A stretch of 64,000 nucleotides of DNA from Pseudomonadota bacterium (GTDB lineage Bacteria > Chloroflexota > UBA5177 > JAJPKF01), in contig JAJPKF010000024.1 of the NCBI GenBank assembly GCA_021323865.1, positions 73,207 through 137,206 on the forward strand. Direction: 5' to 3'. Under the pieces are notes generated by a model. That model saw only the letters and a program-made list of their open reading frames with translations, had not been told where the DNA came from and did no database searches. Below are positions 39,734-58,797 of the stretch, one piece after another; the first letter of the stretch is position 1; each line of letters opens with the position of its first letter. The translations under genes were made by a program, and so were the position numbers.

Positions 39734-40915
39734 TCAGTCCAATTCCCTGCCCATCTCACCGGCCTGAAATAGTGAGTCCAGCCGCCGCGCGGCGTCACGT
39801 TGGAGTTCAGGGGCCATGTGGCTGTAGGTGTTCGCGGTGAGGTTGTATGAACTGTGTCCGAGGATTTCCTGTACAACCTTCATTGGCACTTTCGCGAACA
39901 ACATCAAACTCGCGGCGGTATGGCGCAGCTCGTGTAAGCCGACCTGACGAATACCGAGCGCGGACAGCTCAGCCTTTAACTTGTGATGAACGTTGGTGGC
40001 GTCGAGCGGTGTCCCAAGATCTCCGCAGAAGATCAGGTGGTTGTCATGCCATTCCGCGCCAAGGAGACGACGCCGCTCGTCCTGCCGTGAATGATGATTC
40101 ATCAAGGCCTCGGTCGCGACCTCAGTGAGGTCAATCGTTCGCCGGCTCTTCTCCGTTTTGGTATCAACGAAGACAAGGCCTTTCCCCGGCTGGCGTTGGA
40201 CGGCCCGGCGAATGCGCAGCGTCTTCGTCGCGGCATCGAAATCGTCCCACGTCAGCCCGAGCGCCTCGCCGATACGAAGACCGGCTGTCCCGAGCACCAC
40301 CCACAACGCATGCAGTGGCGAGTCATGAGACCGTTCAAAGAAATCGCGAGCCTCTTCCGGTCGCAACCAGCTGTGGGCCTTGGCCTCGACACGCGGTGGT
40401 TTCGTCCAGTCGATCGGGTTTCGCGGGATGACCTCCCATCGCACGGCATCATTCAGGGCGATGTGCAGGACTCGTCGCGCGTGCCCAACGGTGGCCGGAG
40501 AGAGTCCGTCTTGGAGCATCCTTCCATACCACTGCTGGATGTCGGCAGGTTTTAGCGCTGCGAGCTGAAGGTGGCCGAGATGCTTGTTGATACGACGAAG
40601 GTTGAGGTCGTATGAGATCAGCGTTGATGGACGGATACTTTGCCGTACTGTCCCGATCCACTCACCGAGATATTCCGCAACGGTCTGATGTGTGATCTCT
40701 CCGATGCGTCCTTGCCGCTTGGCAACCTTCGCATCTTCAAGCGCCTGAATCGCCTCCGCTTGTGACTTGGCGTAGATCACCTTTCTCTTCGGCCCGTCGG
40801 GCGTATCGATGGTGATTTCCGCAACCCAGCGTTTCGGTTCGCGTGTGCCATCGGCGCGTAACCGCCCGGCGCGCTCAAAGACCGTGCCTTCGTTGTTGGC
40901 TCGTCGGCGCGGCAT
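39734..40915 (-). CDS. int: Tyrosine site-specific integrase
   Basis: This 393-residue phage-type integrase has an N-terminal arm-binding region (RRRANNEGTVFERAGR), a SAM-like core-binding domain (TVAEYLGEWIGTVRQSIRPS) and a catalytic domain. The catalytic set is intact: Arg in GLRIGEALGL, Lys in the beta-hairpin TKTEKSRR, HELRH, then GH in ILGHSS and the Tyr nucleophile in TANTYSHM. It would recombine the 40-bp tRNA core. I choose the ATG at 40915 because MPRRRANNEG is the family's usual beginning; an ATG at 41008 would overlap the zinc-ribbon gene. It follows ssb and the zinc-ribbon gene on the same strand. Confidence 0.94.
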   Translation of the reverse strand: MPRRRANNEGTVFERAGRLRADGTREPKRWVAEITIDTPDGPKRKVIYAKSQAEAIQALEDAKVAKRQGRIGEITHQTVAEYLGEWIGTVRQSIRPSTLISYDLNLRRINKHLGHLQLAALKPADIQQWYGRMLQDGLSPATVGHARRVLHIALNDAVRWEVIPRNPIDWTKPPRVEAKAHSWLRPEEARDFFERSHDSPLHALWVVLGTAGLRIGEALGLTWDDFDAATKTLRIRRAVQRQPGKGLVFVDTKTEKSRRTIDLTEVATEALMNHHSRQDERRRLLGAEWHDNHLIFCGDLGTPLDATNVHHKLKAELSALGIRQVGLHELRHTAASLMLFAKVPMKVVQEILGHSSYNLTANTYSHMAPELQRDAARRLDSLFQAGEMGRELD

Positions 40916-40964
40916 CAGTTCTGACCAACGGAAGCAAGGTGGGAATAGTCGGGACGCGTCGCTC

Positions 40965-41156
40965 TCATCGTCTGCATCGCCTGCATTCCGCCAGCTGCTC
41001 GACATCATCAGGTCCAGCGCCTTTCTTGCGTGAGCCGGAGTCGTTCCGACAATCCGCGCAGGTGCCGGAGAAATCAACCTCGGTCCACCAGCCACATTCG
41101 CGGCACCACCAATAAATGCGGAAGGGGTTGCCATCCCCGCTGGTCGCCTTCGTCAT
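40965..41156 (-). CDS. 63-residue zinc-ribbon protein
   Basis: This small protein has CRECGWW and CADCRND pairs plus a final CRRCRR, consistent with a zinc ribbon. Its ATG overlaps the TGA of the ssb gene by four bases (ATGA), which marks it as a real, translationally coupled gene. It ends 49 bases before the integrase start. Function unknown; a DNA-binding accessory of integration or replication would fit its neighbours. Confidence 0.75.
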   Translation of the reverse strand: MTKATSGDGNPFRIYWWCRECGWWTEVDFSGTCADCRNDSGSRKKGAGPDDVEQLAECRRCRR

Positions 41157-41542
41157 GACGACACCTCGTGCTCAGGCGCCTCGACAAAGGTGCCGATCGG
41201 TTCACTGTCGTGACTGGCGCTGTCGCCATGCGGCTCTCCCTTGACCGGTACGACGTGAGCGGCCACGAATCGAATGGAGCTGGCGCGCATGTGGTCGTTC
41301 CGTGAGGAAACGCCCGCCTCGATTCGCCCATCCACAAAGACCGGATCGCCGATTTTGAGCGACTCGGCCGCACGCTGTGCCGCAGCTGACCACAGGGTAA
41401 TGAAGTGGTAGTCGTTGCGACCGTCCCCGGAAGTTGACCGCCGCGTACTCATCCGCAAGAAACAGAAAGGCGTCCCTGATGCCGTTCGCAAGAACTCGGG
41501 TGAATGGCTGACGTGACCAAGCAGCTCAAACCGGTTGACCAT
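41153..41542 (-). CDS. ssb: Single-stranded DNA-binding protein
   Basis: This 129-residue OB-fold protein starts MVNRFELLGHV, a variant of the SSB N-terminus, with DYHFITLWSAAAQRAAESL and GDPVFVDGRIEAG as in the bacterial SSB core. The C-terminus (EHEVSS) lacks the usual acidic DDDIPF tail that recruits host repair proteins. The start follows AGGAGG by eight bases. It would cover single strands made while the element replicates or transfers. Confidence 0.88.
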   Translation of the reverse strand: MVNRFELLGHVSHSPEFLRTASGTPFCFLRMSTRRSTSGDGRNDYHFITLWSAAAQRAAESLKIGDPVFVDGRIEAGVSSRNDHMRASSIRFVAAHVVPVKGEPHGDSASHDSEPIGTFVEAPEHEVSS

Positions 41543-41598
41543 GTGACTCCCTCCTGCATGTGAATCGACAGTGAGGAGTCGCAGAAGGTGGCGCCTTG

Positions 41599-42231
41599 TT
41601 ACACGGGGACGTTGTTCGCGTCGTCGGTCTCGCTTTCAGTCAGCAGTGCTCGTGCGTGACGGCGAGCGCGCAGGGCGATTTGCCGGAGATTGTTCGCGCT
41701 CACGCCGAGGAAGCGAGCGAGCTGCTCTGGCTCGCCCCCAAGGAGATAGAGGTGCGTCACAACGCGCCGGTGGCGGTCACTTAAGCGGCGAAGGAGCGAC
41801 GCGACCGTCAACTGGTCGACCGTCAACTGTGCCGGGTCCTGAGCACCGTCGTCCGAGAAACGCTCGTCGTTCTCGTTGATGTAGTGACCGTCACCGACGT
41901 GCACATCGCTGGATCGATGCCGCTCCTCCCGCTGATGCCGGCGGTTAATGTCACTGCAAGCTCGCGATGCGGCCCGGATCAACCACGCCTCATTGGAGTG
42001 GATTCGTTCCCCGGATCGTCGAAGAAATCGGAGGAAGGTGTCTTGTACCGCGTCCTCGGCATCTGCTTCTGAACGCATGCGGCTTCGGCAGAACCGCTTG
42101 ACCGCCGGTTCATAGCGCCGCACGATTGCCGCGTCGGATTCAGAGACTGGCTCAACACGAAGTTCCATTGTTGGGCAGTCGTTCGGCTCCGCGAAATCAT
42201 TACAGGGGTCGTCGTGGGGCATGACCGGCAC
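41599..42231 (-). CDS. Sigma-70 family RNA polymerase sigma factor
   Basis: This ~210-residue ECF-like sigma factor has region 2 in ERY-like residues through DAEDAVQDTFLRFL (the conserved core-binding block) and region 4 in LLRRLSDRHRRVVTHLYLLGGEPEQLARFLGVSANNLRQIALRARRH, a helix-turn-helix. The start may be the GTG at 42231 or the ATG at 42222. No anti-sigma factor is adjacent. It probably directs transcription of element genes. Its upstream DNA is the structured non-coding region. Confidence 0.85.
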   Translation of the reverse strand: MPVMPHDDPCNDFAEPNDCPTMELRVEPVSESDAAIVRRYEPAVKRFCRSRMRSEADAEDAVQDTFLRFLRRSGERIHSNEAWLIRAASRACSDINRRHQREERHRSSDVHVGDGHYINENDERFSDDGAQDPAQLTVDQLTVASLLRRLSDRHRRVVTHLYLLGGEPEQLARFLGVSANNLRQIALRARRHARALLTESETDDANNVPV

Positions 42232-42317
42232 GGTATCGAACGGATGTTCGGTCGGTCAATGCCGTGTCCGCAGACACACAGATGAGAGCGCGCGACGCGA
42301 CGCGAACCGGTCAAAAC

Positions 42318-42375
42318 CCTTGGCGCGGCCGTCCGCAAAGTCACCGAGCCCCCCAATCCCTTCACCGCGCCAAGG
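42318..42375. other. Inverted repeat 1 (11-bp stem)
   Basis: CCTTGGCGCGG at 42318-42328 is the exact reverse complement of CCGCGCCAAGG at 42365-42375. The loop is 36 bases. It abuts the next structure with one base between. Confidence 0.75.
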
Positions 42376-42376
42376 T

Positions 42377-42469
42377 CCAACCCTCGCGCCGGCGGAATAA
42401 CAATTTTGGCGATATGGGAGCCGGCTTCCGGCTGCCATGTCGCTCCGCTGTGCCGGCGCGAGGGATTGG
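42377..42469. other. Inverted repeat 2 (16-bp stem with bulge and inner hairpin)
   Basis: CCAACCCTCGCGCCGG at 42377-42392 pairs with CCGGCGCGAGGG (42453-42464) and TTGG (42466-42469), leaving a single bulged A at 42465. Inside is a second hairpin, AGCCGG-CTT-CCGGCT, at 42419-42433. Confidence 0.75.
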
Positions 42470-42563
42470 CAAAGCCAGGAGAGTCAGTGACCGGGGCATG
42501 AACCCATTGGGGACGGGTCGGGCGGGAATATCGAGCCAAGCGGGCGAGGTCAGCGCGCCCTGA

Positions 42564-42649
42564 AGCAGTCGCTGAGCGAAGGGGAGACGGTGCGGCGCGA
42601 CCAGCGGCGACGAAGTGAACACGGTCTCCCCGAGAGCGATATGACTGCT
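42564..42649. other. Inverted repeat 3 (nested stems)
   Basis: AGCAGTC (42564-42570) pairs with GACTGCT (42643-42649). Within it GGGGAGACGGTG (42581-42592) pairs with CACGGTCTCCCC (42620-42631) with one mismatch. TCGCT/AGCGA pairing between the two stems is also possible. Confidence 0.65.
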
Positions 42650-42923
42650 CAGGATCGAGCACGCGGACTTCGCACGCGACACTCCTTTTCTGGAAACCGC
42701 TGCTCATCGACTCGCTCGCCATCCGATCACCACGATCGCCCCCTTCTTCGTCAATGCCCGCGTCCTTGTTCGTCACTCTGCTGCCGCGCGTGATTGCTCC
42801 TTCCGCTTGCCCCTCCCCTTTGTTCTCCTCGCGTGCTTTGCTCCTATTCATGCCCTGGTCACTGACTCTCCTGCTGTCAATCCGATTTGTTTGTACCGAT
42901 ACGTTCTTGTTCTTTTTCTGCTT

Positions 42924-43104
42924 GCTTGGCCCACCCACTTACCGATCACCGCACCCCGCCTCTTGCCCCGCCCGGTACGACACCCCATCCGCAAAACATC
43001 ATCAAGATGTGTGGGTGGGGTGTCGGGCAAATGACTGTTCATTTGAGGGCGGGGCAATGTGGCGCCATAAGGGTAATTTCTCTGCCTTAATGGGTGGGCC
43101 GAGC
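42924..43104 (+). ncRNA. Nested multi-branch structure, candidate structured RNA or origin
   Basis: An outer 14-bp stem pairs 42924-42937 with 43091-43104. A second 11-bp perfect stem (TTGCCCCGCCC) pairs 42963-42973 with 43047-43057. It encloses a 16-bp hairpin (42978-42993 with 43010-43025) and a 6-bp hairpin AAATGA-CTGT-TCATTT (43029-43044), giving a three-way junction. The three imperfect pairs in these stems (42927/43101, 42988/43015, 42991/43012) are all G-U if the + strand is transcribed and would be A-C on the other strand. That favours a + strand RNA or single-stranded DNA fold. No T-run terminator follows and no promoter is certain. Confidence 0.55.
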
Positions 43105-43131
43105 GAGCAGGAACGTCGACATGGCGCGTGT

Positions 43132-44949
43132 TCATTTCCGGTGAATACCTGAGTGACCACGCATCCACCACCACCGCAGCCGGTCAAGAGTGGATGGTTC
43201 GGGGCCATGAGTCGCTCCGACGGGTTCGACCTGAACAATGGCAGGACGCGAGCGGAAGACGGATCGGACAGCGACATACCCGGTCCGGAGCTCGCGCAGC
43301 TCGTTGGGATTGACGTGATAACTGTTCTGCTCGCGCGCGCTCGCCATCCCGGTCGGCCCCATGCTCTGCTCGATTTGGATCGACGCTTCCCAGCGCATCC
43401 GAGTACCGAACTGCGCGGCGATCACCTCGGCGTCGGCGGCTTCAATCCGGTGGGCGACGATCAGGCCGGCTTGGAGGACGGCCTGACGGATGTTCGTCGT
43501 CTCGGGGATGTACTGAGTCGAGACCAGCGTCGGCAGCAGGCCTTCACGTGCCTGCAGGAGCAGGTCGACGATCTGGTCCGCTTCCGGCAGCGCCGCGAAC
43601 TCATCGAAGACAACGAGCGTCGGAGTGAGCTGCTGTCCAGATCGGATGGCGCCGATACGACGGGCGCATTCCTGCTTCAGATCTTGGGCGACGACTCTGC
43701 CGAGTAGCTCGACGTCTTCGCTCGCGGCCGTGGCCGGCAGATTGACGTACACGACGGACGGTGACGTAAGGACCCGCGGCCAACTCAGGACTTCGCGGGC
43801 AGTATCGGGGGCGAGGAGCAGGTCACGAAACTTACCGTTGAGGAGCGCCATTAACCGAACACGGAGTCCTGCAATCCCGTCGCCGACAGCGCCGCGCTCT
43901 TCAGCCAACACCGTGAGCTCGCGGTGATAGGGCTCGCCGGCACGTTGACCGATTTGCCGCATGCGGCCGGGGATCAACCCTTCGGTCAGTGTTGCCAGAG
44001 TGATTGGCCCGTCGCCGGCTTGTTCCATCGCACGGACTACGGTGGGGATGACCATCATGGCGACGTGCTTGTAAAACTCGCCGCCTGACGTGCCGTAGTT
44101 GAAGATGCCGGTCAGCTTATTGGTGATGTCTGCGGCACTGCCTGTGCACACGTCGTAACCGATGGAGCCGGGATCGTTGGCATCGACGACATGGAGCGAG
44201 AGATCGTGGACGGCTGCGAGCGACTCGGCGATGTGTTTGAGACCGCCACCGCCCTTACAGTCGACGATCACGACGCCGAAGCGCGCCGCACAAACGCCAT
44301 CGGCAATGCGCGCGATGGTCGTGGTCTTGCCGCTTCCGCTCGCGCCCGGAAGAAAGATGTGATGCATAAGCTCATGCCTTTCGAAAGAGAAGATTTCTCG
44401 TGTTTCTCGGTCGATCCCGAGCGCGATCCGTGGCGTCGAATCGCTGTCAGTTTCTGAAGCGGTCGTTCGCGCAGTCGTTCGCAAGCCCGTCGTTGCAAGC
44501 ATGCGCAGCTCTGTTCTCCGTTGTTCAGCGCGCAACGCCGGCATGACTCCGACTCGTAACGCCGACGCCGCCGCTGCGCAAGCCAGCACCAAAACAGGAC
44601 CAAGGAGCGTCTCGATGGTTATGCCGAGTAGCAGATGAAGCGACGGGTAAACGGGGCCGATGCCGATGTAATGAAGGACGTTCTCGGTGTTGGGCCATGA
44701 GCGCCATAACCAGCCGGGCTCGACCACGACATGCGCGGCAAGGAAGAGGACAGCACACCCTGCACCGACGGCCCACCGAATAACTCGGGCCGGTCGAAGC
44801 GCCTGCGTGAACCACCAGAAGCATCCCGCCCCGATGAGTGAACCGGGATCGCTGACCGCGATGATGGTGCAGGCGACCATGCCAAAGACGCCGAGGTCAT
44901 GGATCACACGCTGGGCGTCGCGGTTGTACGCGAGACCGCCGGCCTTCAC
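43132..44949 (-). CDS. TraD/VirD4/FtsK-like DNA-translocating ATPase
   Basis: This 605-residue protein has an N-terminal membrane region of about four helices (residues ~10-135) and a cytoplasmic motor. Walker A is GASGSGKTTTIARIA, Walker B is PTLVVFDEFAALPEA, and VSTQYIPETTNIRQAVLQ resembles the TraG/VirD4 motif III region. It would couple the relaxed DNA strand to a transfer channel or pump double-stranded DNA. The GTG at 44949 overlaps the upstream TGA (GTGA), so the two genes are coupled; a longer frame to 45042 is only overlap. No secretion-channel genes are present. Confidence 0.88.
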   Translation of the reverse strand: MKAGGLAYNRDAQRVIHDLGVFGMVACTIIAVSDPGSLIGAGCFWWFTQALRPARVIRWAVGAGCAVLFLAAHVVVEPGWLWRSWPNTENVLHYIGIGPVYPSLHLLLGITIETLLGPVLVLACAAAASALRVGVMPALRAEQRRTELRMLATTGLRTTARTTASETDSDSTPRIALGIDRETREIFSFERHELMHHIFLPGASGSGKTTTIARIADGVCAARFGVVIVDCKGGGGLKHIAESLAAVHDLSLHVVDANDPGSIGYDVCTGSAADITNKLTGIFNYGTSGGEFYKHVAMMVIPTVVRAMEQAGDGPITLATLTEGLIPGRMRQIGQRAGEPYHRELTVLAEERGAVGDGIAGLRVRLMALLNGKFRDLLLAPDTAREVLSWPRVLTSPSVVYVNLPATAASEDVELLGRVVAQDLKQECARRIGAIRSGQQLTPTLVVFDEFAALPEADQIVDLLLQAREGLLPTLVSTQYIPETTNIRQAVLQAGLIVAHRIEAADAEVIAAQFGTRMRWEASIQIEQSMGPTGMASAREQNSYHVNPNELRELRTGYVAVRSVFRSRPAIVQVEPVGATHGPEPSTLDRLRWWWMRGHSGIHRK

Positions 44950-45629
44950 GGCCAGACCTTCACAGTAATCAGGTGGTCGGCGTACTCGCGAGCGACTAGC
45001 GTGCGCAGCCGTTCGGCGATCTTTGCGGTGGGGACAAACCACCAGACGTGGTCGTATGCCTCCGCGGTGTACGCGCGAATGATTGTTCCATAGTCCCGGG
45101 GGGCCTTCTTTACGAGATCAAGTTCAAGGGCGATCCGCTTGCCGTCGGGAAACGAGAGCAGACCGTCCGGGATGCGTCCGCGCCCGATGTCACGTTCGCC
45201 TGCTCGACGTGCGCGATGCAGCTCGCCACGGATCTCTCGCTCTGTCGTGACCGTTGCTGCTGGATGCTCTGCTTCCAGCTCGCCGAGCAGGTCCACAAGT
45301 TTCAGACTGTGGTTGACCTGTGACGGAACGATTCGAGCGGGCGATATTCCCAGCGCGACCAGACTCGCCCCGCGGCTCGTGACGCGGAGAAGCCGAGGCT
45401 CGTTGAAGAGCCATGGATCACTCTGCATCAGACGCAGGTCGATCAGCTTGGTGACACGGCGGTAGGCGGCACGTTTACCGTGAAAGAACTCGCGCTGGAT
45501 CTGGTCGATGGTCATGATCCCGTGCCGACACGTGCGGGTGAGTAACTCGAAGTCGCGCTCGGTTAACTGCCAGGGAGCGCGGCGCCGATACGTGTGAAGC
45601 TCGGCTGTGGATGATGGTCGGGTAGACAT
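44946..45629 (-). CDS. Replication-relaxation family protein
   Basis: This 227-residue protein begins with a winged-helix region (LTERDFELLTRTCRHGIMTIDQIQREFF, then RRVTKLIDLRLM), which is the hallmark of the Replic_Relax family found in actinobacterial integrative elements and plasmids. The second half (RIPDGLLSFPDGKRIALELDL) has the D...ExE-like pattern of PD-(D/E)XK nucleases, so DNA cutting is possible. It is coupled to the ATPase gene and sits where a relaxase would. Confidence 0.78.
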   Translation of the reverse strand: MSTRPSSTAELHTYRRRAPWQLTERDFELLTRTCRHGIMTIDQIQREFFHGKRAAYRRVTKLIDLRLMQSDPWLFNEPRLLRVTSRGASLVALGISPARIVPSQVNHSLKLVDLLGELEAEHPAATVTTEREIRGELHRARRAGERDIGRGRIPDGLLSFPDGKRIALELDLVKKAPRDYGTIIRAYTAEAYDHVWWFVPTAKIAERLRTLVAREYADHLITVKVWP

Positions 45630-45647
45630 TGGACTGAAGTCGCCGAA

Positions 45648-45914
45648 TTAGGCGGCGTCGTTACGAGGTGAGACGTCACCGCCATTCGCGTTCTTTGCCG
45701 ATAAGGACTCAACGTACGCCTCGAGAGACGCTCTTCGGATGCGGGTCAGCCGCCCGATGTGCACGAAGTCGATCACATGCTGCTTGTTCGCCATGACGTA
45801 GAGCTGGGCACGCGATACCTGCAATAGCGCACACGCCTGGGAGACCGTGAGTAGCAGCGATTTCTCCGACGTCTTCTCGTCGATGGCCTCGCCGTCGGCA
45901 ACTAGAGGCGCCAT
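45648..45914 (-). CDS. Excisionase-like helix-turn-helix protein
   Basis: This 88-residue protein has a MerR/Xis-type helix-turn-helix: LLLTVSQACALLQVSRAQLY then FVHIGRLTRIRRASLEAYVE, the pattern of excisionase-family domains. I choose the ATG at 45914, which overlaps the end of the small membrane gene by 13 bases; the longer frame upstream has no family character. It probably directs the integrase toward excision and may bind the GTACAGT repeats near each end. Confidence 0.8.
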   Translation of the reverse strand: MAPLVADGEAIDEKTSEKSLLLTVSQACALLQVSRAQLYVMANKQHVIDFVHIGRLTRIRRASLEAYVESLSAKNANGGDVSPRNDAA

Positions 45915-46039
45915 CGGATGAATGCCAAGACGAGCTGTACGGCGAGTCGGAAAACGGTGAAGGCGATTTGGATCACCGGCCAGGGTCCAAGGAACCAGGC
46001 GACGGCGATCACGAAGAGGATGATCAAGGTAGTGGTCAT
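45902..46039 (-). CDS. 45-residue single-pass membrane protein
   Basis: This frame starts MTTTLIILFVIAVAWFLGPW and ends FIRWRL, with one or two hydrophobic helices and a basic tail. It lies in the minus-strand run between the 99-residue membrane protein and the excisionase gene and overlaps the latter by 13 bases. Function unknown; the position suggests a transfer or exclusion accessory. Confidence 0.55.
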   Translation of the reverse strand: MTTTLIILFVIAVAWFLGPWPVIQIAFTVFRLAVQLVLAFIRWRL

Positions 46040-46121
46040 GACTTTCCGTCTCTGTCTGTGTCTTCGTGGATGAGCGGGAGCGTGAGCGCGTGGTCGCACT
46101 CACGCTCCCCGTCAGGCTGTT

Positions 46122-51987: not shown

Positions 51988-53118
51988 TCACTTGTGGACC
52001 GTCGGAGCCGCCGCGCCGACTGACCCCCTTCGCAGCGCAGCCCTCTTTGTAGCTTGCCGCAGACTCTCGCCGTATGGGGGACGGGCGACTCCCGCTTCAG
52101 TGACTATTGCGGTGATGCGTCTTGCCGGTGTTATGTCGAAGGCGGGGTTCATGGCAGGGACTCCCAAGGGCGCGACAGGGATCCCGCAAAATGAAGTTAC
52201 TTCGCGAGGGTCGCGCTCCTCAATCGGAATGAGAGTGCCATTGGTCGTTACAAGATCTAGTGAAGACGTTGGAGCCGCCACATAGAACGGGATCTCATGC
52301 GCCGCGGCCAACACAGCCAGGGAATACGTGCCAATCTTGTTTGCGATGTCGCCATTGGCTGCGACTCGATCTGCCCCAACAACCACGGCGTCTACGTCGC
52401 CTCGGCTCATAGCGTATCCGGCCATTCCGTCGGTGAGGATGGTTACTGGTACCCCAAGCACCGACAATTCCCAGCCGGTAAGACGAGAACCTTGCAGGAG
52501 GGGGCGCGTTTCGTCCACGAGCACGGAGACGTTTGGGTCGCGCTCGTGGGCCTTGCGGATGACCCCAAGGGCGGTCCCGTACCCTGCTGTCGCAAGAGGG
52601 CCAGTATCGCAGTGAGTGAGCACGTGTGATCTGCCTCGGAGCAGGTCCGCCCCGAACTCCGACAGGCGCATGTCGGCTTCTACCGATTCTTTGTGAATCG
52701 TCTGTGCCTCCTTGATCAAGGCAGTTTGGATGGCATTGATACCAACCTGACCACCAAGACTTTGGAATGTGCTTGCCATTCGCTCTACTGCCCATTCGAG
52801 ATTCATCGCCGTGGGGCGCGCACGAGTGAGAATTTCGCCGGCACGCGTCAGGCGTTGAGCAAGGTCGCGCCGATCTACCGCATGAAGCCCGGCCAGCGCC
52901 ATCCCATAGGCTGCCGTTATTCCGATGGCGGGAGCGCCCCGCACCTTCATCGCCCGTATGGCTTCTGCTACCTCGGCGGCGGAATCACACGAGATGACGA
53001 CTGAGCGAGCTGGAAGCTGAGTCTGGTCAAGGAGCTCGAGCGCTTCGCCTGTCCAGCAGACAGGTCGAAAAGGCGGGCCGGTGCCTCCGGGCAGGTCTTT
53101 CCATGCTCTCGGAGTCAG
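51988..53118 (-). CDS. mtnA: MtnA-like aldose-1-phosphate isomerase (predicted 5-fluoro-5-deoxyribose-1-phosphate isomerase)
   Basis: This is an eIF2B-alpha/MtnA family isomerase, which turns a 5-substituted ribose 1-phosphate into the ribulose 1-phosphate. Motifs are VRGAPAIGITAAYG, THCDTGPLATAGYGTALGV with the catalytic Cys, and GADRVAANGDIANKIGTY with the catalytic Asp. The ATG at 52950 would remove about 55 family residues (VCWTGEALELLDQTQLP and following), so the gene must begin upstream. The only usable in-frame start is a CTG at 53118 after GAGGGGCGG. An ATG at 53132 that overlaps the previous stop (ATGA) is out of frame, which hints at a frameshift. Its place in the fluorinase cluster suggests 5-fluoro-5-deoxyribose 1-phosphate as substrate; methionine salvage or a DHAP shunt is the alternative. 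Confidence 0.88.
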   Translation of the reverse strand: MTPRAWKDLPGGTGPPFRPVCWTGEALELLDQTQLPARSVVISCDSAAEVAEAIRAMKVRGAPAIGITAAYGMALAGLHAVDRRDLAQRLTRAGEILTRARPTAMNLEWAVERMASTFQSLGGQVGINAIQTALIKEAQTIHKESVEADMRLSEFGADLLRGRSHVLTHCDTGPLATAGYGTALGVIRKAHERDPNVSVLVDETRPLLQGSRLTGWELSVLGVPVTILTDGMAGYAMSRGDVDAVVVGADRVAANGDIANKIGTYSLAVLAAAHEIPFYVAAPTSSLDLVTTNGTLIPIEERDPREVTSFCGIPVAPLGVPAMNPAFDITPARRITAIVTEAGVARPPYGESLRQATKRAALRRGSVGAAAPTVHK

Positions 53119-53128
53119 CGACCGCCCC

Positions 53129-55096
53129 TCATGCTGTCAGACCGGTCAACCCAAGATGTTCCAGCAGCCCGATTAGCTGTAGTTGGCAACTCGGCACATC
53201 AGCAGCAGCAAGCACGAACCCGTGGGCTCGAATGTATACGACCCGCCCCCCTGACAGCCCCCGTGCCACGCCGTCGGCGAGCGCCCGTGAGCCGTACTCG
53301 TGAGGACCGGTCACGGACACGGCATCCGGGAGCGTGCGAGGGTCTACAACATGGTGGAAGTGGGCCACGACCCGGGCCTCGGTGACCGAATAGGCACCCA
53401 TGTGGAGCAGGACCTCCGTCGACGGAGGACCGATGCCCTCGCACATCAGCTTATTGCCGTGCTGGCCTACGACCTTCACGAAATCATCCAGCGTAAGGGC
53501 GCCGATGAAGGCACCCGACGCCGTCACAAAGACGTGCTCCGACTCAACGAAGCTGATGTTTCCAGCGCTATCGAACTGGCCCTCAACGGGGCCCATGCTT
53601 TCACCTAGCTTCCTGATCAGACCGAACAGCGGCCGGGAGATTTCCCCAGCGACGCTGATCCGAGACAGCTCTAGGTCAAACCACCGGTTAGCAGCGGCAC
53701 GCTGGAGGCCAATATCGCCCGACCGAACGCCGTCCCTCACCTCAGTACTGATTTGGGCGGTCGCTTGCCCGTATGGCTCGTCGTGTGGGCCACTCGTCAC
53801 CGACATCCGCGTCCTGAGTTGTTCTGTCCCCTCGACTGTCGCTCTCTCTGGGGATTCGGCAGCATAATGAATCGCGCGTCGAGAGCGAACCAGCCTGACT
53901 ACGTCCTGTCGAACGGCATCCGGTCGTTCGTTCTCCAGCACGACCCGAATGAGCAGTCGACTGACTTTCCGCAAGTCGTTTTCGTCGAACCCGTAGCGCG
54001 TAACTTCCTGGACACCAATGCGGAGGGCATCAAGATGCTCGAAAGCGATGGTGCGGTTTGCAGATATATTGGCACGGATCAGCCGATCAAGGACTGACGG
54101 CCCCGATCCGATTGGGCGCAGATCAACAAACAATTGGTGGTTCGCCGTGAACCCTCGCTCGGGTTCGAGCACAGAGAGCCCACCTTCGTAGAGCGCTCTA
54201 GCGAGGAACTGCGCGTTTGCCACCGTCCGTATCGCGTATTCCCGACCGTAGTAGTACGTCTCATGGAGCGCAACGAAGAGAGCCATGGTTTCGGCGGTAT
54301 GCTGGCTACTTACTAGGCCGGTCGACAGACCATAGATTACCTGGTCCATAAGCGACTCGTCGTTGCCGAGGATGAGGCCCTTCTGCGGCCCGAAGAGAGT
54401 TTTGTGCGTGTTGCCCTGCAGAATGTCGGCCCCTTCTCGCAGGGGGCTCTGAAACTGCCCTCCTGCAATGAGGCCCAATGTGTGCGAAGCATCGTAAACA
54501 ATCGGCACACCATCAGCTATTTCGCGGAGTTCCTTGACGGGAAATGGGAATAGATAGTTCATCAGGTCGAGGTAAAGCAGTGCCGGTCTCTTATCTCGAA
54601 TCACGCGCGCCGTGGCCTCGATATCGAGACGGCGGGTCCTTCTGTCAAAGACAAAAGTGCAGCTTCGACGACCGAACAGGCGGCAGATTGTCTCTGTAAG
54701 GAAATGCCCGCCGTCCTTAGTCGCAATTCTCATCACCGTGTCGCCCGGTTTCGTTAGGGTGGCTACCGTTGTCTGCATGGCATGAATTCCTGAAAGACAT
54801 CGGAACTCGACCCACGCGGCGCCAAACATCGCCTGACACACATGAATGGCGGACGCCTCCATGGCGCTGACATGGTCCAAGCCTCGGTACACGAAGTTGC
54901 CAAGGCGGGCCGTCGTTGGGCCGCGCATACTCCGATGTTCCAAGAAGTAGCGGGAATGCAGGTTCGAGGAGAGAACCGATCGAACGGCGTGCGAAAGCGC
55001 CGTCTCATTGGCCGTCAAATGCAAGACGTCATCGGCCAGGCGCTCCTCCGCGCGGAATTCGTCGAGGAGTTGCTCGACCGTCAGGATTGAGTTCAA
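53129..55096 (-). CDS. Fluorothreonine transaldolase-like PLP enzyme fused to class II aldolase domain
   Basis: This 655-residue protein is a fusion. Residues ~1-400 are SHMT-like and match the 4-fluorothreonine transaldolase pattern: LTANETALS, YDASHTLGLIAGG, then LQGNTHKTLFGPQKG with the PLP lysine Lys232 and LVSSQHT. Residues ~485-650 are a class II aldolase/fuculose-aldolase domain that keeps its active-site set: GNISF, VTASGAFIGALTLDD, Glu561 in PSTE, His579-x-His581 in VVAHFHH and His625 in RAHGF. The enzyme of Streptomyces cattleya turns fluoroacetaldehyde and threonine into 4-fluorothreonine and acetaldehyde and also has a two-domain layout. The TTG at 55096 is the start; it lacks a clear ribosome site. 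It ends 11 bases before the isomerase CTG start and follows the AAA gene by 18 bases. Confidence 0.88.
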   Translation of the reverse strand: MNSILTVEQLLDEFRAEERLADDVLHLTANETALSHAVRSVLSSNLHSRYFLEHRSMRGPTTARLGNFVYRGLDHVSAMEASAIHVCQAMFGAAWVEFRCLSGIHAMQTTVATLTKPGDTVMRIATKDGGHFLTETICRLFGRRSCTFVFDRRTRRLDIEATARVIRDKRPALLYLDLMNYLFPFPVKELREIADGVPIVYDASHTLGLIAGGQFQSPLREGADILQGNTHKTLFGPQKGLILGNDESLMDQVIYGLSTGLVSSQHTAETMALFVALHETYYYGREYAIRTVANAQFLARALYEGGLSVLEPERGFTANHQLFVDLRPIGSGPSVLDRLIRANISANRTIAFEHLDALRIGVQEVTRYGFDENDLRKVSRLLIRVVLENERPDAVRQDVVRLVRSRRAIHYAAESPERATVEGTEQLRTRMSVTSGPHDEPYGQATAQISTEVRDGVRSGDIGLQRAAANRWFDLELSRISVAGEISRPLFGLIRKLGESMGPVEGQFDSAGNISFVESEHVFVTASGAFIGALTLDDFVKVVGQHGNKLMCEGIGPPSTEVLLHMGAYSVTEARVVAHFHHVVDPRTLPDAVSVTGPHEYGSRALADGVARGLSGGRVVYIRAHGFVLAAADVPSCQLQLIGLLEHLGLTGLTA

Positions 55097-55114
55097 GCTA
55101 GGCGCCGTTTCGCG

Positions 55115-57163
55115 TCAGTTGGCGCTCTCTTCCGCCTCGGCCTGCCTTATGGCGAACTCGAACGAGCAGCAAGCAGACCGGGGGTCCTTTCCCGCATTTT
55201 CAACTCCGCATTGCTTCCTGGTCACGCTGGCCCGGGGCTCTTCCACGAACGCTGCACGTGCCAGCTGCTCAAGCACCCCTTCGATGTATCCCTGCTCTAC
55301 GCTGCAGTAGCGACAGCTGTGATCGCCCACCCCTTTCGTCGCCATACCAGAGAAGAAGCTGTTTCGGATGCTCACATTGCCTGACTCACCTGTCTCGTTG
55401 GGTGATGCGCTCCACAAACCCCACCCCCCGCTGACATCAAACTTGCACCAGTTACCAATGAGCTTAGGCATGTCTGGCTCGGCTTCGCCTATCTCCCCCA
55501 AGAACCCCACAAAGTCCGTACCAAAAGCCTCCCCCATCTCTCGACCGACTTTTAGCTGGGCGTCTGGGTCACCCGAAACGAACTCCTCGAAGAGTCGGCG
55601 TAGGGTGTTCAGATTAAAGAAGACGTGCCGTAAGTTCTTGTTCCCGTGAACCCATTGGCCGTTCTCAGCATCCAACCACAACTGGGTTATGTGCAGCGGC
55701 TCGATTCCAGCATATGAAGTCATATCGATCGGTCCAGTAGTGGCTACCTCGCCTCGCAACTCATGGTCTAATTGGTAAGCAAGCTGCCCGGCTGATTGCT
55801 TGGTCCACGCCACCGGCGGATTGAGGTCATCAAATGTCTTTGCCCAAACAGGCACGTAATGGTCGTGCTCCTGGCACTGCTTCCACAGCTCCTGGACACC
55901 AGCGATCCCCTGATCGTTCATGAGGTGGTAGATGAGACCGCTGTTTTTATACTCATCACCGTCGCCGAGTACTCTGTTGAGAACTTCGGGTCTCAGGATG
56001 CCATTTTCAATAGCGCCGCGGTCGTCTTGGGCCGATATCCTCGTGACTACGCCAATGAGATGGTCGAGGCTTCGGACGCTGTACCTAAAGCGTGCGTTGT
56101 AAACGAAGCGCAGGAAGCTCGCCGGCGCCCTTAGAAGGCCAGGATCCTTACCCCTGGCTGCATCCTCGCCCGGCTCGCCAGTAAAGCCGGGGTCCTCGCC
56201 TCCGGCCGGACGTTCTTGCCCCGCCGGGCTTCCGGTCGAAAATCGCCGCCGCAACAGTGCGACCGCGATGCAGACTTTGTCGGTCTGCCGATGCTCCCCA
56301 GCAAGGCGTGGGATGCGAATGACCCCTCCGTTGACGCGCGAAATCAGGTCGACCAACTTCGTCTCACTGGCCTGGCCTACCGTCCCCTGCTCATCCATGT
56401 CGGCGGCGTCATCAAGAGCCGAGGGCAGGTCGGTATTGCTTCCTGATAAGACGATGACCGCCCGACCTAGCGTAAGCCTACGCGCACCCAACGCCATCTC
56501 CCCGTCCCACAGGAGTGGCAGTAGGAGGCTGTAGTTTCTGCTATCACTGTCAAACTCGTCCAAGAAGAGAAGGGGAACGCGGCCCGAGACCGTTACGTTC
56601 CTGGCCGAATCCAGTGCGGACGCCAAGTCGTCAGCGTCGCGCATGCTCGCCATGTTAAAGAGAATAGCCTCTACGGCGACCTTCAGCTTCCGGGACACGC
56701 ACTCCACGAAGTACGACTTGCCCTCACCCGGGCCTGCTATAAGAGCCAGATTGAGCGGTCTCGTGACGGACGCATCCTTGGCGTATCGCTCAATGGAGCG
56801 AACAACGCGTCCTATGTCCCGTATGTAACTGAAGTCAAGGGTCGCATATCCTGGCAAACTCTGGTCGCTCTTCTGGAGAGAGAAAAGAAACCGCGCCTCG
56901 TTCGCAAATCGATCATCTCCCTTAGACGTGCGGGCGAAAATAAGATCCCGGATGCGTCCCTGCGCAGTGGCGAGATCCTCCTGGCTCGGCTCAGCCTTCA
57001 GTTGTGCGACCTCGTCAGGTCCGTTCCAGAATGCGTTGCTCCGGGCACTCCGACCGAGCGTGCTGGAGCGGCGCGTCAGGCTCATGTCACTAGCCTTTGG
57101 CTGCCTCCTTCGAGGCTGTGGTTTACTCTGTGACTGCGATACGTTCGAGCCGCGGCGATGCAA
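55115..57163 (-). CDS. AAA ATPase fused to V4R-like sensor domain
   Basis: This 682-residue protein has a basic N-terminus and an AAA module with Walker A GPGEGKS (144-150) and Walker B LLFLDEFDS (198-206), followed by a long helical region with an acidic, Gly-rich insertion (~305-345). The last ~140 residues resemble a V4R (4-vinyl-reductase) ligand domain: WGLWSASPNETGESGN, NSFFSG, and CRYCSVEQGYIEGVLEQL with further Cys, which may bind metal. No sigma54-contact or DNA-binding domain is seen, so it is not a classical XylR regulator. Placed inside the fluorinase operon, it may remodel or sense something in the pathway; the role is unknown. The ATG at 57163 overlaps the deacylase gene by 41 bases; the ATG at 57085 (AAAGG upstream) is an alternative. 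Confidence 0.82.
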   Translation of the reverse strand: MHRRGSNVSQSQSKPQPRRRQPKASDMSLTRRSSTLGRSARSNAFWNGPDEVAQLKAEPSQEDLATAQGRIRDLIFARTSKGDDRFANEARFLFSLQKSDQSLPGYATLDFSYIRDIGRVVRSIERYAKDASVTRPLNLALIAGPGEGKSYFVECVSRKLKVAVEAILFNMASMRDADDLASALDSARNVTVSGRVPLLFLDEFDSDSRNYSLLLPLLWDGEMALGARRLTLGRAVIVLSGSNTDLPSALDDAADMDEQGTVGQASETKLVDLISRVNGGVIRIPRLAGEHRQTDKVCIAVALLRRRFSTGSPAGQERPAGGEDPGFTGEPGEDAARGKDPGLLRAPASFLRFVYNARFRYSVRSLDHLIGVVTRISAQDDRGAIENGILRPEVLNRVLGDGDEYKNSGLIYHLMNDQGIAGVQELWKQCQEHDHYVPVWAKTFDDLNPPVAWTKQSAGQLAYQLDHELRGEVATTGPIDMTSYAGIEPLHITQLWLDAENGQWVHGNKNLRHVFFNLNTLRRLFEEFVSGDPDAQLKVGREMGEAFGTDFVGFLGEIGEAEPDMPKLIGNWCKFDVSGGWGLWSASPNETGESGNVSIRNSFFSGMATKGVGDHSCRYCSVEQGYIEGVLEQLARAAFVEEPRASVTRKQCGVENAGKDPRSACCSFEFAIRQAEAEESAN

Positions 57164-57614
57164 TCGCTACGTAGTCGCGCGTCCTTAGTTCGAGGGAGCG
57201 ATCAAGCCGGGCGGCGTTAAAGTAAATATTCTCGTTGTCCAGCAGGGACGGATCGACTATCAGGACAAGATCCGGGTGAAAGGGGAAAGGCAGGACCGTG
57301 CCCGCAACGCTGCCGGCAAGACTCTCAGCCTTATCAGCAGAAGCCATCGACACGTAGGTACCACGGAAGAGATTCTTCACGGCATTCAGGTCAATGCGCT
57401 TATCGCCCGGGACGACTGCCAAGACCCACCTGGAGGTCTTCTTGCCCACCTTCACCATTACGATCATGCACTTAGCAGCTTGGCGCAGCTCGTTACCCCG
57501 CATTGGGCTGACGATGTCGGTCCGACCTTCGGCCGGATGATCGATCAGTCGATACTGTGCCTGGTGTTCGTCAAGAAGTACGATGAGCCGTGTGTAGGTA
57601 TCCGAATCGTCCAA
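57123..57614 (-). CDS. YbaK/ProX-family aminoacyl-tRNA deacylase (predicted fluorothreonyl-tRNA editing)
   Basis: This 163-residue protein belongs to the YbaK/ProX editing family, free-standing relatives of the ProRS insertion domain that hydrolyse mischarged tRNA. Signs are the conserved Lys in RQAAKCMIVMV (Lys48), VVPGDKRIDLNAVKNL, the GSVAGTVLPFPFHPDL loop and YFNAARLDRSLELRTRDY. The start is the TTG at 57614, set by GGGAGG seven bases upstream and only 4 bases after the fluorinase stop. Some family members (ProXp-ST) act on Ser/Thr-tRNA. S. cattleya, the known fluorothreonine producer, uses a trans-editing deacylase against fluorothreonyl-tRNA, so the same self-protection is the best guess here. 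Confidence 0.85.
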   Translation of the reverse strand: MDDSDTYTRLIVLLDEHQAQYRLIDHPAEGRTDIVSPMRGNELRQAAKCMIVMVKVGKKTSRWVLAVVPGDKRIDLNAVKNLFRGTYVSMASADKAESLAGSVAGTVLPFPFHPDLVLIVDPSLLDNENIYFNAARLDRSLELRTRDYVAIASPRLERIAVTE

Positions 57615-57618
57615 TGAG

Positions 57619-58797
<1,179 letters not shown>

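What the first reader, a model, noticed from the sequence alone, without database searches (positions are those of the whole stretch)
53129..55096. Transaldolase fused to an apparently active class II aldolase domain
The C-terminal domain keeps the class II aldolase Glu (561), the two metal His (579, 581) and the third His (625). If active, one polypeptide could split 5-fluoro-5-deoxyribulose 1-phosphate into fluoroacetaldehyde plus DHAP and pass the toxic aldehyde straight to the PLP site at Lys232 to make fluorothreonine. This would explain why no separate aldolase gene is present.
Basis: inference. Interest (0 to 1): 0.9.

Follow-up and report, generated by a model that had tools for sequence, protein, structure and literature searches.

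The report
Fluorothreonine transaldolase with kept aldolase site
This gene encodes a known two-part enzyme that makes the rare fluorinated amino acid 4-fluorothreonine; its second part still carries most of an aldolase's metal and phosphate site, so it may also make the toxic aldehyde that the first part uses, but I found no published test of that and two tyrosines of ordinary aldolases are missing.

Summary
The protein is a fluorothreonine transaldolase (TIGR04506, 758.9 bits, cut-off 650). Its SHMT-plus-aldolase fusion and a bound zinc are already published for this family, so neither is new. What I add: (1) all 13 aligned members keep the class II aldolase pocket (three zinc His, catalytic Glu, phosphate-binding Asn/Gly/Ser); (2) the Glu mutated in the 2020 paper is a different one (window Glu600); the true aldolase Glu (window Glu561) was not tested there; (3) all members lack the segments carrying E. 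coli FucA's Tyr113 and Tyr209; (4) an MtnA-like isomerase often lies beside the gene, a free class II aldolase never within the fetched flanks, and three of seven fluorinase-bearing genomes have no FucA-type aldolase. Bifunctionality is possible but unproven: S. cattleya without this gene still makes fluoroacetate, so another aldolase works there. I give the aldolase reading 0.4. Incidental: a fluorothreonine operon in a genome that appears not to be actinobacterial, and six Myxococcales MAGs without a detected fluorinase that pair this enzyme with a serine/threonine-dehydratase-like gene.

The parts
53129..55096 (-). Fluorothreonine transaldolase gene, 655 aa, TTG start
   Evidence: TIGR04506 758.9 bits, cut-off 650; ORF
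53885..55096 (-). S domain (SHMT/threonine-transaldolase fold), residues 1-404
   Evidence: Pfam SHMT 12-381; model closest to ObiH L-threonine transaldolase 7k34, Z 46.4
54401..54403 (-). Lys232, PLP lysine
   Evidence: invariant; aligns with FTaseMA Lys237; codon checked
53696..53851 (-). Linker, residues 416-467, predicted disordered
   Evidence: pLDDT under 50
53132..53686 (-). A domain (class II aldolase fold), residues 471-655
   Evidence: Aldolase_II; model pLDDT 92.1, Z 18-19 to FucA and DrdA structures
53558..53560 (-). Asn513 = FucA Asn29 (phosphate contact) = FTaseMA Asn484
   Evidence: invariant in 13
53513..53515 (-). Gly528 = FucA Gly44 (phosphate contact)
   Evidence: invariant in 13
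53420..53422 (-). Ser559 = FucA Ser71 (phosphate contact)
   Evidence: invariant in 13
53414..53416 (-). Glu561 = FucA Glu73 / DrdA Glu76, aldolase base
   Evidence: invariant in 13 and present in S. cattleya
53354..53362 (-). HFH: His579 and His581, zinc ligands (FucA His92, His94)
   Evidence: invariant
53294..53299 (-). Glu600-Tyr601 of the EYGS motif (Tyr601 at the FucA Phe131 place); Glu600 = FTaseMA Glu573
   Evidence: invariant in FTases; Glu at this place not seen in 29 other Aldolase_II proteins
53222..53224 (-). His625, third zinc ligand (FucA His155)
   Evidence: invariant
51988..53118 (-). MtnA-like isomerase (first ATG at 52950; a full N-terminus needs a CTG start at 53094 or 53118)
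   Evidence: TIGR00512 371.7 bits, cut-off 279; open frame upstream
55115..57163 (-). AAA-like protein of unknown role inside the operon
   Evidence: weak Pfam AAA match, E 0.0067, below cut-off
57123..57677 (-). FthB-like aminoacyl-tRNA deacylase
   Evidence: Pfam tRNA_edit; 63-71% identity to genes in five other FTase loci
57619..58722 (-). Fluorinase
   Evidence: TIGR04507 450 bits, cut-off 400; 62-68% identity to actinobacterial fluorinases

Best explanation
It is a fluorothreonine transaldolase in a small operon with a fluorinase, an FthB-like deacylase and a dedicated isomerase. Shown: the family, the predicted fold and the kept zinc/Glu/phosphate pocket. Inferred: the C-terminal domain binds the isomerase product 5-fluoro-5-deoxyribulose 1-phosphate at zinc (carbonyl and C3 hydroxyl on the metal, phosphate near Asn513/Gly528/Ser559), Glu561 moves the proton, and C3-C4 cleavage gives DHAP and fluoroacetaldehyde; the role of FucA Tyr113 would have to be taken by another group, for example the FTase-specific Glu600-Tyr601. 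The PLP domain (Lys232) then exchanges the aldehyde with threonine, giving 4-fluorothreonine and acetaldehyde. Direct channelling is not shown.
For: All seven core positions invariant in 13 FTases. Phosphate contacts kept, whereas pyruvic oxime dioxygenases, relatives with a non-phosphorylated substrate, lost them. All 13 A domains match ribulose-1-phosphate aldolase, MtnB and FucA models; DrdA and FucA structures lead the fold list. Isomerase in or near the FTase locus in five of seven fluorinase loci, a free aldolase in none. The window genome and A. mzabensis have only a RhaD-type fusion and N. brasiliensis only an MtnA-MtnB fusion; rhamnulose-type aldolases favour L-threo products, FucA D-erythro.
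Against: Segments with FucA Tyr113 and Tyr209 are missing. S. cattleya flFT mutant makes only fluoroacetate, so another aldolase works there, and the in-vitro reconstitution used five overexpressed enzymes. FTaseMA is reported a dimer, while FucA-type sites lie between subunits of a tetramer. A-domain mutants impair use of free fluoroacetaldehyde, which needs no cleavage. RhaD-type selectivity is not strict with unnatural aldehydes. The genome is 92% complete.
Confidence: 0.4

Rival explanations
1. The A domain dehydrates fluoroacetaldehyde hydrate to free aldehyde for the PLP site, as proposed for FTaseMA; a cellular aldolase makes the aldehyde.
For: Published proposal; zinc 1:1; H551A, H598A and N484A fall to 14.5, 18.1 and 27.7% with supplied aldehyde, close to K237A at 13.1%. 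Needs neither the lost tyrosines nor an aldolase role. S. cattleya makes fluoroacetaldehyde without FTase.
Against: Does not explain the invariant phosphate contacts. The Glu proposed as base is window Glu600, not the aldolase Glu. Propanal and isobutyraldehyde are turned over at comparable kcat. Same pocket kept in six MAGs with no detected fluorinase.
Confidence: 0.3
2. The A domain no longer catalyses: its zinc site holds the fold together, or binds DHAP or a ketose phosphate to regulate the PLP domain.
For: Catalytic tyrosine segments are lost; E573A destabilised the protein and zinc resists EDTA; the A domain is less conserved overall than the S domain (31-39% against 50-62% identity to the window).
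Against: The catalytic Glu561 position stays invariant in all 13, which a purely structural role does not require.
Confidence: 0.25

Closest known systems
4-Fluorothreonine transaldolase FTaseMA / FlFT (Streptomyces sp. MA37, S. cattleya)
   Same: Same two domains, PLP Lys, zinc His x3, Asn; same EYGS motif
   Different: Window copy is about 50% identical to the S. cattleya one, has a longer linker, and lies in a genome without detected WhiB
[quoted passage not shown]
   Same: Predicted fold (Z 18-18.5), metal triad, Glu, phosphate contacts
   Different: Fused to an SHMT-like domain; Tyr113 and Tyr209 segments missing; about 20% identity
L-Threonine transaldolase ObiH/ObaG (7k34)
   Same: Predicted fold of the S domain (Z 46.4) and PLP transaldolation type
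   Different: Single domain, no metal domain; other aldehyde substrate
Methylthioribulose-1-phosphate dehydratase MtnB / haloarchaeal ribulose-1-phosphate aldolase
   Same: Among the best-scoring NCBIfam models for the A domain
   Different: All matches far below the curated cut-offs; not members

Membership tests
Fluorothreonine transaldolase (TIGR04506) | Equivalog model over cut-off | tested here: met
   758.9 bits, cut-off 650
Fluorothreonine transaldolase (TIGR04506) | SHMT-like domain with PLP Lys plus aldolase domain with zinc His x3 and Asn | tested here: met
Fluorothreonine transaldolase (TIGR04506) | Fluorinase and FthB-like deacylase in the pathway | tested here: met
   Both in the same operon
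Fluorothreonine transaldolase (TIGR04506) | Makes 4-fluorothreonine from fluoroacetaldehyde and threonine | not testable with these tools
   Needs enzyme assay
Class II (FucA-type) ketose-1-phosphate aldolase | Metal His triad and catalytic Glu | tested here: met
   His579, His581, His625, Glu561 invariant
Class II (FucA-type) ketose-1-phosphate aldolase | Phosphate-binding Asn29, Gly44, Ser71 (and Thr43, Ser72) | tested here: met
   Asn, Gly, Ser invariant; Thr43 mostly Ser; Ser72 varies Ser/Ala/Thr/Val
Class II (FucA-type) ketose-1-phosphate aldolase | Catalytic Tyr113 (and C-terminal Tyr209) from the neighbouring subunit | tested here: not met
   Segments absent in all 13 FTases; so not filed as a FucA-type aldolase
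Class II (FucA-type) ketose-1-phosphate aldolase | Aldol cleavage activity; tetramer with shared active sites | not testable with these tools
   Needs assay and a structure of the assembly

The most novel reading that the evidence does not exclude
Fluorothreonine transaldolases are bifunctional aldolase-transaldolases that cleave 5-FDRulP and hand fluoroacetaldehyde inside one polypeptide to the PLP site. This would supply the unassigned aldolase step in organisms without a FucA-type enzyme; the myxobacterial members without a detected fluorinase would do the same with a non-fluorinated ketose phosphate, followed by a dehydratase.
Probability: 0.3. Interest if true: 0.85.

Novelty: new member of a known kind. 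Interest (0 to 1): 0.5.

Why it matters
In natural C-F metabolism the aldolase that forms fluoroacetaldehyde was described as still elusive (PMC3999930). If the A domain does it, that step closes with one protein and the published role of the domain changes. The test is simple, and the residue to mutate (window Glu561) is now named; the 2020 paper mutated a different Glu.

Tried and rejected
Rejected: chance ORF (family score, 12 relatives); degenerate A domain (active-site positions invariant); a new kind of fusion (published 2008 and 2020). 'No aldolase in the genome' rejected: a RhaD/dehydrogenase fusion is present. Class II FBP-aldolase family PF01116 not found in the own genome; class I aldolase families were not searched. 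Full-length fold comparison listed only S-domain matches, so the A domain was modelled alone. Geometry of the zinc site and any tunnel could not be measured: models came without coordinates, as monomers, linker pLDDT under 50. Tree of A domains: FTases form one group (100/99), but the nearest aldolase subfamily is unresolved. The S. cattleya plasmid record carries no gene annotation in that stretch. The first attempt to hand in this report failed its schema.

Full report
What is there. The ORF 53129-55096 on the minus strand encodes 655 aa. Pfam finds an SHMT domain and a class II aldolase/adducin domain; NCBIfam calls it fluorothreonine transaldolase, 758.9 bits over a cut-off of 650.

Surroundings. 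On the same strand lie, with short or overlapping junctions, a fluorinase (450 bits, cut-off 400), an FthB-like tRNA deacylase, an AAA-like protein, the transaldolase and an MtnA-like isomerase. A second MtnA-family gene sits beside a nucleoside-phosphorylase-family gene on contig C17; that pair looks like methionine salvage and could supply the phosphorylase step, leaving the cluster copy as the dedicated isomerase (inference). No free-standing aldolase is in the cluster. In the rest of the genome (2.96 Mb, 92% complete) the only other Aldolase_II protein found is a rhamnulose-1-phosphate aldolase/dehydrogenase fusion; family PF01116 was not found.

Already known. The fusion is reported from S. 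cattleya and MA37. FTaseMA binds zinc 1:1, and His551, His598 and Asn484 mutants lose most activity; the authors propose that the A domain dehydrates fluoroacetaldehyde hydrate (PMC7162832). So a metal-binding A domain is not a new observation. The parts of the main text that I read report no test of aldol cleavage.

Which glutamate. The S. morookaense homologue (L001) carries K237, N484, H551, H553, E573 and H598, exactly the FTaseMA numbering. FTaseMA's own sequence was not in hand, so this rests on identical numbering at six residues. On it, the published Glu573 is the Glu of an EYGS motif (window Glu600). The class II aldolase base, DrdA Glu76 or FucA Glu73, aligns with the PSxE motif, which is window Glu561 and would be FTaseMA Glu533.

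What is kept and what is lost. Across 13 FTases the positions of FucA Asn29, Gly44, Ser71, Glu73, His92, His94 and His155 are invariant. In S. cattleya's FTase the Asn, Glu and three His are present as well. In FucA, Asn29, Thr43, Gly44, Ser71 and Ser72 hold the phosphate, Glu73 takes the C3 proton and Tyr113' the C4 hydroxyl proton (PMC11841055). Pyruvic oxime dioxygenase, an iron-dependent relative, lost all of these but the three His (PMC5216522). But the FTases have 20-23 residues where FucA has 37 between HxH and the Phe131 place, and end 24-33 residues after the third His against 60, so Tyr113 and Tyr209 have no counterpart. At the Phe131 place FTases have an invariant Tyr601, preceded by a Glu seen there in none of 29 other Aldolase_II proteins; the pair could stand in (inference). 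The domain model (pLDDT 92) is closest to FucA and DrdA structures (Z 18-19).

Genomic distribution. Twelve relatives were found. Six lie in actinobacteria with a fluorinase; six lie in Myxococcales MAGs where no fluorinase was detected, although the two tested (L005, L006) pass the same equivalog model at 768 and 795 bits. In those MAGs the gene is followed by a conserved gene, serine/threonine-dehydratase-like where tested (L006). The name 'fluorothreonine' transaldolase may therefore be wrong for them. Among the seven fluorinase genomes an MtnA-like gene lies in five FTase loci (window, L003, L008, L010, L012), and none has another Aldolase_II gene close to FTase (in A. mzabensis the RhaD fusion is on the same contig, about 195 kb away). 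In N. brasiliensis, A. mzabensis and the window genome no FucA-type enzyme was found; Wang et al. also found none in N. brasiliensis (PMC3999930).

Weighing. The kept phosphate site and the missing aldolase gene favour a ketose-phosphate function. The lost tyrosines, the fluoroacetate-only phenotype of the S. cattleya flFT mutant (PMC8072733) and the effect of A-domain mutants on supplied aldehyde speak against a simple aldolase role. I put 0.4 on aldolase function, 0.3 on hydrate handling and 0.25 on a structural or regulatory role.

Origin. WhiB, typical of actinobacteria, was not found in the genome (the control rings only in Corynebacterium), and none of the six other genomes held for its class has a fluorinase over cut-off. 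The operon has 58.9% G+C against 65.7% in the first 38 kb of the window, though 59-61% in its immediate flanks, and lies beside a serine recombinase and, further off, integrase and replication-relaxation genes. It was probably acquired horizontally with a larger island (inference).

Noticed in passing
51988-58722 (-): A compact fluorothreonine operon (fluorinase, deacylase, AAA-like protein, transaldolase, isomerase) in a genome with no detected WhiB, so probably outside Actinomycetota, and without a clustered phosphorylase or exporter.
   Followed up: partly
L004 9971-12925, L005 1974-4752, L006 9959-12770, L007, L009, L011: Six Myxococcales MAGs carry this enzyme with no fluorinase detected, always followed by a conserved ~310-aa gene (serine/threonine-dehydratase-like in L006): an unknown, probably non-fluorinated pathway.
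   Followed up: partly
52950-53118 (-): The MtnA-like gene has no ATG, GTG or TTG start for its N-terminus; the frame is open to the FTase stop with in-frame CTG at 53094 and 53118. CTG start or a sequence error.
   Followed up: partly
55115-57163 (-): 682-aa AAA-like protein inside the operon, with no relative in the other FTase loci or in the plasmid collection.
   Followed up: partly
L001 numbering; PMC7162832: The Glu573 of the published FTaseMA 'catalytic tetrad' appears not to be the class II aldolase Glu; that would be Glu533.
   Followed up: yes
39734-46103: Phage-type integrase, AAA/TrwB-like protein and replication-relaxation protein: probably remains of an integrative element.
   Followed up: no
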